A stretch of 13,788 nt of DNA, taken from the NCBI GenBank assembly GCA_023129675.1, contig JAGMBM010000036.1, positions 1-13,788 on the forward strand. The letters run 5' to 3'. This document shows positions 2,243 through 5,806 of this stretch, piece by piece. Numbering within the stretch: the stretch's first letter is position 1; every line of letters starts with the position of its first letter. The translations under genes and the position numbers were made by a program. The DNA is from Hadesarchaea archaeon (GTDB lineage Archaea; Hadarchaeota; Hadarchaeia; Hadarchaeales; Hadarchaeaceae). The notes below the pieces were generated by a model. The model was not told where the DNA came from. It made no database searches and saw nothing but the letters and a program-made list of their open reading frames with translations.

Positions 2243-3088
2243 TTATCTTATCAAACTCCTGCAAAATTCTAAATTGTTTTTAAGGTCTTCCTCGGATGCG
2301 TAAACCCTTTTTCTTGTATAGAAAGTTTCCAAGACAACATATCTGCAACTTGTCTTTTTAATTGCCCTAATGATATTTTCAAAATTCAAGTTCCCTTTTC
2401 CAATAACAAAGTGATCTATTGGTTTCAAGTTGTCTCCAAGTAAGCAATCGTGGAGGTGAACGGTCAAAACACGATCTTTGAAAAGGTCGAGCCAATCATC
2501 TATCTCCAGTTTTTCGCCTGACCCCCCTTTCGCATGTTGAATTTCCCATTTAGATACAACAGCGTGACCAACGTCGAAGCAAAAATTTAGGGCACTGATA
2601 TTATCTAGAAGAAGCTTGATATCACTTGGACGCCCGAAGAGGCGGCTAGGATTATTTTCAATCGTAACCGGAAAACTTCTCCCAAAATTTACTATCGTGC
2701 GGGTCGTTTCTAACGCTTTATTAAAAATTTTTCTCCTGATTTCTTCGAAGCTAGAAGTTGTAATGTGTCCGATTTGATGAAAGTTGAAATACAGAGGATT
2801 AAACCCTTCCGCAAATTTTAAGCATTTTTCGTAAATCTTCAGGCAAGCATCGGAAATCTCATCCCTTGGATGGAAGATAACTTTCCCAGACCAAGGTCCG
2901 TGGAATGATATTTCTAATCCATACTCTTCCTTTAGTTTTTCCAACAATCCTATCTCCTCACTTGTCAGTTGATCCGGCCAAGGGTAGTCCAAGGAAAGTT
3001 CGATAAAGTCAAATCCCAGCCTGCGTGCCTTTTCAAATGTAGGCCGTAGGGGTCTATCCCCATACCAGACACTTGTCGCAAATTTCAT
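2243..3088 (-). CDS. TIM-barrel sugar isomerase/endonuclease IV-like protein (AP_endonuc_2 family), copy B
   Basis: A 281-residue paralogue of the next gene in the same superfamily. Visible metal-site residues are His63 (SFHGPW), His104 (FNFHQIGH), Glu144 (VTIENN), Asp172 and His175 (FDVGHAV), His213 (VHLHD), His226 (PIDHFVIGKGNL) and Glu254 (VVLETF). The Asp that sits two residues before the last His in endonuclease IV is Ile224 here, although Asp225 is adjacent, so the third metal site may differ from copy A. The gene is markedly AT-rich beside GC-rich neighbours, which suggests separate acquisition. No Shine-Dalgarno is visible before ATG 3088, but a TATA-like element sits about 25-30 bases upstream, compatible with a leaderless transcript. 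It lies downstream of endonuclease V (51-base gap) and upstream of copy A (20-base gap). Substrate unknown; a hydrolase or isomerase role is inferred from the fold. Confidence 0.82.
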   Translation of the reverse strand: MKFATSVWYGDRPLRPTFEKARRLGFDFIELSLDYPWPDQLTSEEIGLLEKLKEEYGLEISFHGPWSGKVIFHPRDEISDACLKIYEKCLKFAEGFNPLYFNFHQIGHITTSSFEEIRRKIFNKALETTRTIVNFGRSFPVTIENNPSRLFGRPSDIKLLLDNISALNFCFDVGHAVVSKWEIQHAKGGSGEKLEIDDWLDLFKDRVLTVHLHDCLLGDNLKPIDHFVIGKGNLNFENIIRAIKKTSCRYVVLETFYTRKRVYASEEDLKNNLEFCRSLIR

Positions 3089-3139: not shown

Positions 3140-3802
3140 TCAGTGAGATTTCATCGCCCGCGTGGCGAGTTCGTGGGCGGCTCGCAAAGGTTCCGGCAGA
3201 CGAAATCCTCGTGTCGTTTCAAGCGCAATCCGAATGGCCGTTTTGAGCGAAAGTCCGTGGCCGATGCTCACGTATACCGGCCTGTTGGAGGGCTGCGTTC
3301 GAAGCACGGCTCCTATGATTTCCCCGTTATCTTTGAGTAGCGAGCACGCGCCGCGTTCCCGCTTCGGCTCTTCAGCCCTCCCGCACAATCTGTTCTTAGC
3401 TACCCCTAACGTCGGCTTGTTCAGCGTCACCCCAAGGTGGCATGCCAGACCGGCTCGGCGGGGGTGCGCTAACCCTTGAGCACCCACCATGTAAACATCC
3501 GCATCCATACCTTCGACTGCCTTCAGCATCCCCTCGAGCTCTCGAAAGGCCAGAAAGGTCGGGATGTATGGGAACCTCATCCTGACTCCGACGGCTTTTC
3601 GTTCGAGTACCTCAAGACTTTTGTAATCGAGCACCGCGCAGGCGGCGTAGGCCAGCCCGTCTCGCGCGAAGGAGATGTCACACCCGGCGATGCGCTTGAG
3701 CTTCTTGAAACGATTCTTGCGCACTACCCGCTTTGCTACCCGTGCTTGGAGCCGAGCCAACTCGTCGAGGTCCAACTTCGGGGGGCGTAGGAGGGGAAGC
3801 AT
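3140..3802 (-). CDS. nfi: Endonuclease V homologue with altered catalytic Asp
   Basis: Endonuclease V nicks nucleic acid near deoxyinosine/inosine in repair of deaminated adenine. From ATG 3802 the protein has 220 residues, the normal family length. Family motifs run in order: GCDISF (Asp42), FPYIPTFLAFRE (Tyr79, Glu88), GAQGLAHPRRAGLA (107-120), TLGVAKNRLCG (131-141), GH (181-182) and LPEPLRAAHELAT (His210). The bacterial catalytic set is Asp-Glu-Asp-His (T. maritima D43, E89, D110, H214). Here the third residue, normally Asp in (V/L)DGxG, is Gly107 (MVGAQG, codon GGT), so cleavage may be lost or changed. The start at 3802 has GGTG 9-13 bases upstream; a longer in-frame start at 3910 would overlap the divergent zinc-protein gene and adds residues unlike the family. 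It heads the leftward group with the two TIM-barrel genes. Confidence 0.9.
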   Translation of the reverse strand: MLPLLRPPKLDLDELARLQARVAKRVVRKNRFKKLKRIAGCDISFARDGLAYAACAVLDYKSLEVLERKAVGVRMRFPYIPTFLAFRELEGMLKAVEGMDADVYMVGAQGLAHPRRAGLACHLGVTLNKPTLGVAKNRLCGRAEEPKRERGACSLLKDNGEIIGAVLRTQPSNRPVYVSIGHGLSLKTAIRIALETTRGFRLPEPLRAAHELATRAMKSH

Positions 3803-3836
3803 TTTGGGCACCTTCACTGGCAATTTTGCGGAGAAG

Positions 3837-3844
3837 TTATTAAT
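3837..3844. promoter_or_regulatory. Candidate shared TATA element between nfi and the zinc-protein gene
   Basis: The 70-base divergent gap has one strongly AT-rich element, TTATTAAT, whose core ATTAAT is self-complementary. It lies about 29 bases upstream of the rightward ATG at 3873, which would give a nearly leaderless transcript, and about 35 bases upstream of the leftward ATG at 3802. One element could serve both directions; this is inferred from spacing only. Confidence 0.35.
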
Positions 3845-3872
3845 TTTGAGCACATAACAGATTTTGGTAAAT

Positions 3873-4046
3873 ATGCGAGCGAAAGGGCCAAAGTGTAAGC
3901 TTTGCGGCAAGACCGTCCAGATGATGAGCTACGACGCCGCATATGTCAAAATAGTGAAGCCCGGTGAGGTAAAGGCGAGCTTCGTCTGCTGGAAGTGCGC
4001 GGAGAAACTGCTGGGCGACAAGCTTGGGGAAATCACGAGCGCGTAG
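3873..4046 (+). CDS. Small four-cysteine zinc-ribbon-like protein
   Basis: A 57-residue protein with two Cys pairs, CKLC near the N-terminus and CWKC about 30 residues later, the spacing of a zinc ribbon. The rest is basic and short. ATG 3873 is preferred over an in-frame TTG three codons earlier. Its stop is 18 bases before the TTG start of the primase-like gene on the same strand, so the two are probably cotranscribed. I do not recognise a named family. Because the downstream primase-like protein lacks the internal zinc motif usual in PriS, this small protein is a candidate separate zinc module or partner, which is inference from context. Other possibilities are a nucleic-acid-binding or protein-binding adaptor. 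Confidence 0.75.
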   Translation: MRAKGPKCKLCGKTVQMMSYDAAYVKIVKPGEVKASFVCWKCAEKLLGDKLGEITSA

Positions 4047-4064: not shown

Positions 4065-5144
4065 TTGTCGAAAGCGACACCTGAGGACCACGCACTCATA
4101 ACGCTTGCCATCAAGCGCCGCGGCAAGTTCGTGGACGTGCCGCACGTCCAGGAGAAACTGAGCCGCGATGCAGGTGAGAAGTTCTCGGAGGAGGGAACGC
4201 GAGAACTCCTAGGTGCTCTCGATAAAAAGGGTTGGGTCGAGAGCAAAGCCAGTGAGTTTGCGATCACTGATACCGGACGCAAGTACTTCGTCAAGCGGTG
4301 GCGGGAGGTCAGGGAGCAACTAAACCAGGACTACCTCAAGGTCTACCGCGCAAAGCAATACTATCCCCACGTGGTCGATGCCCTGCTCGAGTTCTGCCGC
4401 GACCGCTGGGTGTCGGTCTTTCGCCTCTTCACCGAGCGCGCGTGGCTCCAGCGAAAGTTAGGGCCCCGCTACATCACGATAAAAAGTGCGAAGGATGTGC
4501 AGCGGTGGCTAGACGTCCACGGCATCGATTTCATCCCTTACATCCACCGCGTGGACGCAGATCGCCCCGACTGGCTCGTGATCGACTTCGACGCGGGCAA
4601 AAAAGTTGAGCTCGATCGGACGAAGGGGGTGGTCCATGAGGCATATAAGGTGCTCGCTGGATACGGAATCGAACCGGCGATCAAGTTCAGTGGCTCGCGA
4701 GGCTTCCAGTTCTGGGCGCAGTTCGAACGCCATGAGTTGCCGAAGGGGTACAGGCCGAAGCAGCTTCGGACCGAACGAAGGGAGCGAAATGCTTTTAATT
4801 TTTATGCAGACATCGTGCGGTTCATCGAGTCACGCGTAGCGGAACGCTTGCCGGGGCTGACGACGGCCGAGACGGCTAAGAAGGAAGCGCGAGCTGACAA
4901 AGTCTTGTTCGATGCATCCATCATCAAGCCCATGGGCGATGTGCGGGCGCCCTACAGCATGCATTACAAAACGGGGCTAATTTCAATGCCGTTGGGGTTG
5001 AAGGAGCTCAAGCGTTTCGAGCCCGAGCAGGCAGACCCGGAGCTCGTGGTGAAGCGATATCGGGGGCGGGGGAACGAGTTCACACTTAAGTCAGCCAATG
5101 GCAAAGAACTCTTTGAGGCCGTTGTCGAGTGGTGTAGGAGCTGA
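4065..5144 (+). CDS. Winged-helix plus archaeo-eukaryotic primase/polymerase (AEP)-like protein
   Basis: A 359-residue protein. Residues about 8-80 look like a winged helix (LLGALDKKGWVESKASEFAI then a TDTGRKYF ending). From about 135 it resembles the AEP superfamily, between the LigD polymerase domain and PriS: motif I WLVIDFDAG (Asp174, Asp176), motif II KFSGSRGFQFW (208-217) and motif III with LFDAS (Asp283) followed by VRAPYSMHYKTGLISMPL (293-310), which matches the PriS 'R-P-S-H-KTGL' and LigD 'APYS...MPL' signatures. The His usual in motif II is Gln215. The Cys/His zinc motif found inside many PriS proteins is absent. The expected activity is template-directed primer or gap-filling nucleotide transfer in replication or repair. 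No ligase, Ku or PriL gene is seen here. It follows the zinc-protein gene by 18 bases. AEP membership is fairly sure; subfamily and role are open. Confidence 0.78.
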   Translation: MSKATPEDHALITLAIKRRGKFVDVPHVQEKLSRDAGEKFSEEGTRELLGALDKKGWVESKASEFAITDTGRKYFVKRWREVREQLNQDYLKVYRAKQYYPHVVDALLEFCRDRWVSVFRLFTERAWLQRKLGPRYITIKSAKDVQRWLDVHGIDFIPYIHRVDADRPDWLVIDFDAGKKVELDRTKGVVHEAYKVLAGYGIEPAIKFSGSRGFQFWAQFERHELPKGYRPKQLRTERRERNAFNFYADIVRFIESRVAERLPGLTTAETAKKEARADKVLFDASIIKPMGDVRAPYSMHYKTGLISMPLGLKELKRFEPEQADPELVVKRYRGRGNEFTLKSANGKELFEAVVEWCRS

Positions 5145-5190: not shown

Positions 5191-5514
5191 ATGGGACTGA
5201 TCCACTACCAGACCCTTGAAACCGTCGGCCCCGAGGAGCTTCGAGCGCTGCGGGCGATCAAGGAGGAGTTCAACGCGCGGCGGGCATTCAGTGAGCGCAT
5301 TAGACTCTGGCGGAAGTCGGACATCCTTGAAGGCATGGAGCCCCGCGGTGCGCGCTGGGGTTTCACCCGGGTGCGGGATGACGAGGACAAACTTCGAATA
5401 GTTTTGACGGTTAGGCGTATGTCGCAGGCGACACCACACCTGACTTGGTTGCTCTGCGATGAGGGCGACGGCAACAGGGAAGTCGTGCTTAAAGGCGGCA
5501 AGCCCGTGGCCTAG
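5191..5514 (+). CDS. Hypothetical protein, 107 residues
   Basis: I do not recognise this family. The product is soluble, charged and without membrane segments or Cys motifs. The N-terminal half (about 10-48) is helical and Arg/Glu-rich (PEELRALRAIKEEF, then RIRLWRKSDILEGM). The second half looks like a beta sheet (RWGFTRVRDDEDKLRIVLTV, HLTWLLC). It has GC-rich coding composition like its neighbours and a TATA box at the right distance, supporting a real gene. Its TAG stop is immediately followed by the first copy of the 16-bp inverted repeat, and the Cas2-like gene starts 25 bases after the stop. The close spacing suggests joint expression with that gene. Function cannot be stated. Confidence 0.6.
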   Translation: MGLIHYQTLETVGPEELRALRAIKEEFNARRAFSERIRLWRKSDILEGMEPRGARWGFTRVRDDEDKLRIVLTVRRMSQATPHLTWLLCDEGDGNREVVLKGGKPVA

Positions 5515-5530
5515 TGTCTCAAATAGGACA
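5515..5530 (+). repeat. 16-bp inverted repeat, copy a
   Basis: TGTCTCAAATAGGACA. The right half is identical to the other copies; the left half pairs with one G-T wobble and one mismatch. It starts directly after the stop of the 5191 gene and runs straight into GGTGAT, the ribosome-binding site of the Cas2-like gene. Confidence 0.8.
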
Positions 5531-5536
5531 GGTGAT
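5530..5536 (+). promoter_or_regulatory. Shine-Dalgarno AGGTGAT for the Cas2-like gene
   Basis: AGGTGAT matches the archaeal anti-Shine-Dalgarno well and lies three bases before ATG 5540, deciding that start over an in-frame upstream ATG at 5459. Its first base is the last base of repeat copy a, so a hairpin at the repeat could affect ribosome access. Confidence 0.65.
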
Positions 5537-5539
5537 GTC

Positions 5540-5806
5540 ATGGCATACTTGCTGGTCTACGACTTAGATGGTCGAAGCAAGGCAAGGCGAAGGATGAATC
5601 GCTACCTGAAGCGTAATGCGCGGCTAGTGCAACATTCGGTGTGGAGGTTTCAAGATTTGGCTGCGTTGCGAGCTGCTGCCGAGCGCGTGCTCACGGCGGA
5701 GGGCAAGGTACTGGCATTCGTTGAGTCGGATCGGATTCTTCTGACATCGAGGGAGGTTAGACGGCTTTTACCCGGTGTCTTGAATAGGACAGAGCGTCCT
5801 AAATAG
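5540..5806 (+). CDS. Orphan Cas2-like small protein
   Basis: An 88-residue protein resembling the CRISPR-associated Cas2/VapD ferredoxin-like fold. Strand 1 is AYLLVYDLDG with Asp8 at the position of the Cas2 metal-binding Asp, then a basic helix (KARRRMNRYLKRN), then RLVQHSVWRF (28-37), which matches the Cas2 'R-VQ-SVF' strand, a second helix (LAALRAAAERVL) and strand KVLAFVESDRILL. Length is typical of Cas2 (85-95). No cas1, effector gene or CRISPR array is visible, so this looks like a stand-alone Cas2 relative; such proteins may be RNases, toxins or structural DNA-binding subunits. ATG 5540 is fixed by its Shine-Dalgarno. The C-terminal tail (VLNRTERPK and the TAG stop) is encoded by two tandem copies of the inverted repeat. 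Family assignment is from motif reading only. Confidence 0.62.
   Translation: MAYLLVYDLDGRSKARRRMNRYLKRNARLVQHSVWRFQDLAALRAAAERVLTAEGKVLAFVESDRILLTSREVRRLLPGVLNRTERPK
5776..5791 (+). repeat. 16-bp inverted repeat, copy b
   Basis: TGTCTTGAATAGGACA, inside the 3' end of the Cas2-like gene, 19 bases before copy c (start to start). All six stem positions can pair at RNA level when one U-G wobble is allowed. Confidence 0.8.

What the first reader, a model, noticed from the sequence alone, without database searches (positions are those of the whole stretch)
4065..5144. AEP primase/polymerase-like protein with an N-terminal winged helix and no internal zinc motif
The protein shows AEP motif I (Asp174/Asp176), a motif II with Gln replacing the usual His, and a PriS/LigD-like motif III with RAPYSMHYKTGL. 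It has no Cys cluster of the PriS kind, carries a winged-helix N-terminus and sits without ligase, Ku or PriL. It reads as intermediate between LigD-Pol and PriS, so it may be a distinct replication/repair polymerase.
Basis: partly seen in the sequence, partly recalled or inferred. Interest (0 to 1): 0.7.

Follow-up and report, generated by a model that had tools for sequence, protein, structure and literature searches.

The report
Winged-helix archaeal repair primase-polymerase family
This gene encodes a DNA-building enzyme, conserved in a group of little-known archaea, that sits between the enzymes that start DNA copying and those that patch DNA breaks, and its gene neighbours suggest that it works in DNA repair.

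The parts
4065..5144 (+). winged-helix AEP primase-polymerase (WH-AEP), 359 aa, TTG start
4077..4310 (+). N-terminal winged helix, about residues 5-82
   Evidence: secondary structure H6-15 H25-36 H42-54 E58-61 E64-67 H69-81; weak winged-helix Pfam matches below cut-off
4320..5141 (+). AEP catalytic core, about residues 86-359
   Evidence: Pfam LigD_Prim-Pol E 3.3e-19 over residues 134-336; fold matches
4584..4592 (+). motif I, D174-x-D176
   Evidence: invariant in 31 of 31 family rows and in 43 of 43 LigD-type rows
4689..4709 (+). motif II, SGSRGxQ, residues 209-215, Gln in place of His
   Evidence: Q in 31 of 31 family rows, H in 43 of 43 LigD-type rows; Q in 43 of 43 family rows, 40 distinct
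4911..4913 (+). motif III, D283
   Evidence: invariant in 31 of 31 family rows
4944..4964 (+). PriS-type motif IV, R294...H300
   Evidence: R and H in 43 of 43 family rows; LigD-type rows have A 35, V 7, S 1 of 43 and R 43 of 43; motif defined in PMC5862659
3873..4046 (+). 57-aa CxxC...CxxC zinc-ribbon-like ORF ending 18 nt before the polymerase gene
   Evidence: same-strand upstream in 22 of 23 hadarchaeal loci; four Cys invariant in the 18 aligned
3140..3910 (-). divergent endonuclease V homologue (true start perhaps near 3802, inferred)
   Evidence: Pfam Endonuclease_5 E 1.6e-65; divergent and upstream in 23 of 23 hadarchaeal loci; metal-binding Asp replaced by Gly

Best explanation
WH-AEP is a chromosomal primase-polymerase of the AEP superfamily, a family distinct from PriS, NHEJ LigD-Pol and Prim-PolC, that carries out short DNA-repair synthesis without Ku. 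Inferred mechanism: D174, D176 and D283 hold two metals; S209, R212, Q215, R276, R294 and H300 hold the triphosphate, with Arg/His of PriS type in motif IV beside the motif II Gln; the winged helix grips duplex DNA next to a nick or short gap, in place of the 5'-phosphate pocket of LigD-Pol. The gap or end is made by repair enzymes such as those encoded beside it (EndoV homologue, EndoIII-type glycosylase, LigD-type phosphoesterase), and the cell's DNA ligase seals. Shown here by computation: fold, invariant residues, missing NHEJ features, distribution, neighbourhood. Inferred: catalysis, substrate, DNA binding, partners.
For: Best fold matches are Prim-PolC with gapped DNA and LigD-Pol; Prim-PolC is a base-excision gap filler (PMC5663958, abstract and section 11 read). 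Catalytic Asp invariant. DNA-repair neighbours in separate lineages: EndoV homologue in 23 of 23 hadarchaeal loci; HhH-GPD glycosylase within 5.3 kb in 9 of 14 Methanomethylicota-class genomes; LigD 3'-phosphoesterase within 4.6 kb in 4 of 14, followed by a photolyase gene in 3; Nre in G130. Ku found in only 8 of the 25 hadarchaeal genomes with the gene and in none of the 14 others. Separate PriS present. Purifying selection.
Against: No biochemical data. The EndoV homologue has Gly at a Mg-binding Asp position in 21 of 23 loci, so it may not cut. One of the 14 Methanomethylicota-class loci (L175; downstream flank cut by the contig end) and the Thermoplasmata locus L054 show none of the queried repair neighbours. 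The glycosylase is the immediate divergent neighbour in only 4 of 14. Other genes near the hadarchaeal locus are also syntenic, so the EndoV link may partly be shared descent. Prim-PolC and LigD-Pol scores are tied (26.4, 25.9, 25.8). The 5'-phosphate signature used by both is missing (0 of 31). A Ku-positive minority exists.
Confidence: 0.5

Rival explanations
1. It is the NHEJ polymerase of these archaea, working with Ku and the small ligase, encoded away from them.
For: In the 8 Ku-positive hadarchaeal genomes it is the only LigD_Prim-Pol match over the family cut-off. In the six of eight Ku regions I read, Ku stands beside a small ligase and I saw no polymerase ORF (ORFs judged by eye from their first 70 residues). 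A LigD 3'-phosphoesterase lies near WH-AEP in 4 Methanomethylicota-class genomes.
Against: Kept in 17 of 25 hadarchaeal genomes where Ku is not found, among them 5 of the 10 that are at least 90% complete, and in 14 Methanomethylicota-class genomes without detected Ku. No 5'-phosphate signature (0 of 31 against 36 of 43) and loop-1 region of 16 or 28 residues against 33-40. A true NHEJ polymerase with His beside Ku, Lig and phosphoesterase is a different protein, nested among bacterial LigD.
Confidence: 0.15
2. It is a second primase or damage-tolerance enzyme that primes or re-primes DNA synthesis past lesions (PrimPol-like), the winged helix binding fork DNA.
For: PriS-type motif IV R/H in 43 of 43 rows; profile similarity to DPANN primases, E 8e-22; photolyase gene near it in 3 genomes; archaeal PriS can bypass UV lesions (PMC4538821, passages).
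Against: No internal zinc cluster; no helicase seen beside it; global fold nearer to LigD-Pol/Prim-PolC than to PriS.
Confidence: 0.25
3. It is a domesticated plasmid or virus replication primase (PrimPol-PV1/PolpTN2 kind).
For: Gln in motif II and Arg in motif IV as in PolpTN2 (PMC5862659, section 9 read).
Against: Near-universal in the order with conserved chromosomal neighbours. The window protein has no PHROG match at E 1; over the 24 members the best are unnamed or transcription-regulator families (best E 7e-6), and the only replication-related name is one 'replisome organizer' match (E 0.097, 1 of 24). H300 where PolpTN2 has Asn; clear LigD similarity.
Confidence: 0.05

Closest known systems
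Prim-PolC (LigC-associated gap-filling polymerase, Mycobacterium smegmatis; 6sa0, 6sa1, 5op0)
   Different: 19% identity; winged helix added; no 5'-phosphate signature; Gln in motif II; no LigC-type ligase seen beside it; archaeal
LigD-Pol / archaeal NHEJ polymerase (2irx, 2fao, 5dmu)
   Different: Q for H; R294/H300 where LigD-type rows have mostly A, and R; loop-1 region 16 or 28 instead of 33-40 residues; an insertion after motif II; found without detected Ku in most genomes
PriS (replicative primase catalytic subunit)
   Different: no zinc cluster; no significant profile-profile match to hadarchaeal PriS; Gln for His; a separate PriS is present
PolpTN2 / PrimPol-PV1 supergroup
   Same: Gln in motif II with Arg in motif IV
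   Different: His not Asn at the third position; LigD-like core; chromosomal; no PriL-like fusion in this 359-aa protein

Membership tests
AEP superfamily | AEP fold with motif I DxD and motif III acidic residue | tested here: met
   model and PDB matches; D174, D176, D283 in 31 of 31
AEP superfamily | three carboxylates meeting in one site | not testable with these tools
   no coordinates returned; the three lie on predicted strands 171-177 and 280-283
AEP superfamily | motif II sxH | tested here: not met
   Gln in 43 of 43 family rows; the His is known to be relaxed in PolpTN2-like AEPs (PMC5862659)
NHEJ LigD-Pol | LigD_Prim-Pol profile | tested here: met
   Pfam E 3.3e-19, 69.9 bits, cut-off 27.4; but NCBIfam ligD_pol 49.9 bits, cut-off 214.7
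NHEJ LigD-Pol | 5'-phosphate pocket signature N..K...(T/S)K before the first helix | tested here: not met
   0 of 31 family rows; 2 of 2 archaeal NHEJ and 34 of 41 bacterial rows
NHEJ LigD-Pol | loop 1 | tested here: not met
   16 (25 rows) or 28 (6 rows) residues between alignment positions 120 and 137, against 33-40 in LigD-type rows; sequence alignment only, and the model is unsure at 129-134
NHEJ LigD-Pol | encoded with Ku and ligase | tested here: not met
   not adjacent in the window; Ku in 8 of 27 genomes of the order and 0 of 9 of the genus
Prim-PolC | C-terminal extension with loop 3 | not tested
   the model ends with helix 347-358; loop 3 was not compared
Prim-PolC | 5'-phosphate pocket K23, K35, N20 | tested here: inconclusive
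   the LigD-type sequence signature is absent, 0 of 31, but Prim-PolC itself was not in that alignment, and replacement by winged-helix residues is not excluded
PriS | DNA_primase_S profile | tested here: not met
   no match listed for the window protein; G023 member 19.6 bits and 18.7 bits, E 0.0025, cut-off 26.8; L054 and L055 members E 0.051 and 0.018
PriS | zinc-binding Cys cluster | tested here: not met
   two Cys only, residues 111 and 357
PriS | H-R/K-H triphosphate triad | tested here: not met
   Q-R-H in 43 of 43 family rows; H-R-H in 12 of 14 hadarchaeal PriS, 2 not fully read by the pattern
PrimPol-PV1 | motif IV Arg with relaxed motif II | tested here: met
   R294, Q215
PrimPol-PV1 | no appreciable similarity to LigD AEP | tested here: not met
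   LigD_Prim-Pol over cut-off
PrimPol-PV1 | carried by mobile elements | tested here: inconclusive
   conserved chromosomal context in 23 of 23 hadarchaeal loci; plasmid, phage and viral collections not searched

The most novel reading that the evidence does not exclude
WH-AEP is a living stem lineage between replicative primases and the LigD/Prim-PolC repair polymerases: an archaeal, Ku-independent repair polymerase that kept the PriS-type motif IV, swapped motif II His for Gln, and uses a winged helix and a neighbouring EndoV-derived damage reader to find its substrate.
Probability: 0.25. Interest if true: 0.8.

Novelty: new variant of a known kind. Interest (0 to 1): 0.58.

Why it matters
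What acts after EndoV was described in 2015 as unclear (PMC4357722, abstract), and how primases gave rise to NHEJ polymerases is open. A near-universal hadarchaeal AEP with a mixed PriS/LigD active site, kept without Ku in most genomes and next to repair genes, is a concrete candidate for both questions and can be expressed and assayed directly. In my paper searches no listed title or abstract start describes such a family; I read only parts of a few of the listed papers and the library holds open-licence papers only, so that is weak evidence of novelty.

Tried and rejected
Replicative primase: rejected as the main reading; a separate PriS is in 25 of 27 genomes. CRISPR or defence role: a Cas2-like ORF lies downstream, but it is below Pfam and NCBIfam cut-offs; a tandem-repeat search gave one short 17-base, two-copy array and a direct-repeat search (20 bases or more) gave none; the polymerase has only weak PADLOC matches (E 0.0011 and 0.028, to reverse-transcriptase models). 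Base-excision reading of the two TIM-barrel genes: PF01261 includes EndoIV (recalled), but NCBIfam deoxyribonuclease IV models are far below cut-off and MJ1311 is the nearest solved relative, so left open. PolX as competitor: 0 of 27 genomes over cut-off, but the control genomes also stay below it, so uninformative. Zinc-ribbon protein: model pLDDT 80, no PDB match at E 0.001 or better. Absence from the fold lists means little: only 50 rows were shown.

Dropped or missed rows: the pattern failed to read 4 of 18 bacterial rows fully, 2 of 14 PriS and 1 of 9 DPANN; two bacterial rows read as R at the motif IV position there, against the alignment, and I rely. PriS proteins were extracted from 14 of 15 loci. 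The tree used 18 of 41 bacterial LigD rows. The 43 family rows hold three pairs that are the same record fetched twice, and the 9 DPANN rows one such pair (identical rows). The fragment from G007 was left out of the alignments. The first EndoV script missed 4 of 23 loci; one search recovered all 23. In one search my per-residue lines were off by a numbering offset; only the motif lines are used.

Full report
WHAT IT IS. The ORF at 4065-5144 (+) encodes 359 aa. Pfam finds LigD_Prim-Pol (PF21686) at E 3.3e-19, over its cut-off, and lists no DNA_primase_S match. NCBIfam ligD_pol matches (E 3.2e-13) far below its equivalog cut-off, and PriS models more weakly still (E 0.0027, 0.013). The window lies in a 976-kb, 245-contig genome estimated 79% complete; near relatives by name are Hadesarchaea/Hadarchaeum.

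CONSERVATION. A protein search over 61 genomes found it in 25 of 27 genomes of the order (8 of 9 in the genus, 12 of 13 others in the family, 5 of 5 others in the order; G007 is a fragment at a contig end); the one other genome of the phylum has none. Identity is 60-93% among the 24 aligned. A profile search over 345 archaeal genomes gave 89 with matches; family members are those of the order, G130 (full length) and a short N-terminal stretch in G200. The rest are partial matches of 56 bits or less, many in open frames of about 420-500 aa; the nine I read (eight distinct) are primase-like with His in motif II. In the phylum of G130, 1 of 23 genomes has a full-length member. The class of the Methanomethylicota locus L055 has it in 14 of 40 genomes. 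A collection scan gave L054 (Thermoplasmata, 41%) and L055-L059 (Methanomethylicota, 34-36%), with matches running from residues 3-5 on, that is, including the winged-helix region. That scan used two peptide patterns only, so the range is a lower bound.

ACTIVE SITE. In an alignment of 31 family rows with 2 archaeal NHEJ and 41 bacterial LigD polymerases, D174 and D176 are shared by all and D283 by all but one bacterial row with a gap there. Position 215 is Q in 31 of 31 family rows and H in 43 of 43 others. Position 294 is R in 31 of 31 against A in 35, V in 7 and S in 1 of 43; position 300 is H in 31 of 31 against R in 43 of 43. Over 43 family rows (40 distinct) the triad is Q-R-H without exception. 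By pattern, PriS shows H-R-H (12 of 14), DPANN primases H-R-H (3) or H-R-N (5) of 9. Human PriS H166, K318 and H324 are the equivalents and take part in NTP binding; PolpTN2 has Q, R, N; LigD lacks the motif IV Arg (PMC5862659 section 9 and passages; PMC4434180 passages). So the family combines a LigD-like core with PriS-like motif IV and a PolpTN2-like motif II.

WHAT IT LACKS. The N..K...(T/S)K signature of the 5'-phosphate pocket: 0 of 31 family rows, 36 of 43 LigD-type rows. Loop-1 region: 16 or 28 residues against 33-40. It has 26 or 13 residues after motif II (positions 217-244) against 8. Prim-PolC and NHEJ polymerases share the pocket and loops (PMC5663958 section 11). Whether the winged helix takes over that pocket is inference.

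PHYLOGENY. An 86-row tree (83 different) gives the family as one clade (99/93), next to LigD on one side and PriS plus DPANN primases on the other; the two archaeal NHEJ polymerases nest inside bacterial LigD. The program warned of long branches and an unsettled bootstrap, and the root is at the midpoint. Profile comparison: family-LigD E 7e-27, family-DPANN 8e-22, LigD-DPANN 3e-11, DPANN-PriS 2e-9; family-PriS and LigD-PriS not significant.

NEIGHBOURS. In 23 of 23 hadarchaeal loci an EndoV homologue lies upstream and divergent (0.14-1.6 kb from the polymerase start), and in 22 of 23 a zinc-ribbon-like ORF precedes the gene on the same strand. In the 14 Methanomethylicota-class genomes, distances from the polymerase start: an HhH-GPD glycosylase within 5.3 kb in 9 (immediately divergent in 4), and a LigD 3'-phosphoesterase within 4.6 kb in 4 (L172, L173, L174, L177), followed by a photolyase gene in three and by only a 29-residue photolyase match in L172; L175 shows none, its downstream flank being cut. 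G130 has Nre divergent. L054 has none of the queried genes. Ku: 8 of 27 genomes of the order, 0 of 9 of the genus; 1 of 40 in the class of L055, and that genome lacks the family. Several of these genomes are incomplete; among the 10 hadarchaeal ones at least 90% complete, all have WH-AEP and 5 have Ku. In the six of eight Ku regions read, Ku stands beside a small ligase with no polymerase ORF seen; one ligase is cut at a contig end. By contrast, true archaeal NHEJ sets with phosphoesterase, Pol, Ku and Lig and motif II His occur in G130's phylum.

RESULTS AGAINST THE SIMPLE MODEL. The hadarchaeal EndoV keeps the first Asp and the Glu (23 of 23) but has Gly for the Asp of the VDGHG motif in 21 of 23; only L050 and L051 keep it. 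That Asp binds Mg in Thermotoga EndoV (PMC4650699 passages). It may therefore read damage rather than cut.

OTHER AEPs IN THE ORDER. On checking the weaker matches, G009, G020 and G021 each hold a second AEP-like protein of 281-305 aa, below the Pfam cut-offs, in which I see neither the motif I Asp pair nor the motif II His; G013 holds an 870-aa reverse transcriptase fused to an AEP (Pfam RVT_1, AEP-TOTE). None of these is the family described here.

MECHANISM AND LIKELIHOOD. AEP fold and motifs: near certain. Repair synthesis independent of Ku: 0.5. Priming or damage tolerance: 0.25. NHEJ: 0.15. Domesticated mobile primase: 0.05. No activity has been measured. The check changed counts and wording, not odds.

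Noticed in passing
3140-3910 (-) and homologues in L032-L053: Hadarchaeal EndoV has Gly in place of a Mg-binding Asp in 21 of 23 loci, the first Asp and the Glu kept: a conserved, possibly non-cutting EndoV.
   Followed up: partly
3873-4046 (+): 57-aa CxxC...CxxC ORF upstream of the polymerase gene in 22 of 23 hadarchaeal loci; no Pfam family over cut-off and no PDB fold match at E 0.001.
   Followed up: partly
L179:1130-2044 (-), L180:51-956 (+), L181:671-1513 (-): A second AEP-like protein in G009, G020 and G021 with no motif I Asp pair and no motif II His that I can see but an ending like motif IV: possibly a catalytically dead AEP subunit.
   Followed up: partly
L182:1086-3695 (-): 870-aa reverse transcriptase fused to an AEP (RVT_1 plus AEP-TOTE) in genome G013.
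   Followed up: no
5191-5514 and 5459-5806 (+): Overlapping ORFs: an unknown 107-aa protein and a Cas2-like protein below cut-off; their families occur in 10 and 9 of the 29 loci compared; no repeat array found in the window.
   Followed up: no
1386-2264 and 2243-3088 (-): Two tandem xylose-isomerase-like TIM barrels (PF01261), nearest solved relative MJ1311; function unclear.
   Followed up: partly
L103-L108: Ku beside a small ligase, with no polymerase ORF seen at the site, in Ku-positive Hadarchaeota.
   Followed up: partly
L172-L174, L177: Stand-alone LigD 3'-phosphoesterase near the polymerase in genomes without detected Ku, with a photolyase gene next to it in three of four.
   Followed up: partly
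L044:2971-3603: A Translin-family protein upstream of O-phosphoseryl-tRNA synthetase in a relative of the window.
   Followed up: no
control: Methanocaldococcus jannaschii matches LigD_Prim-Pol over cut-off but does not ring in the Ku control; the gene was not fetched.
   Followed up: no
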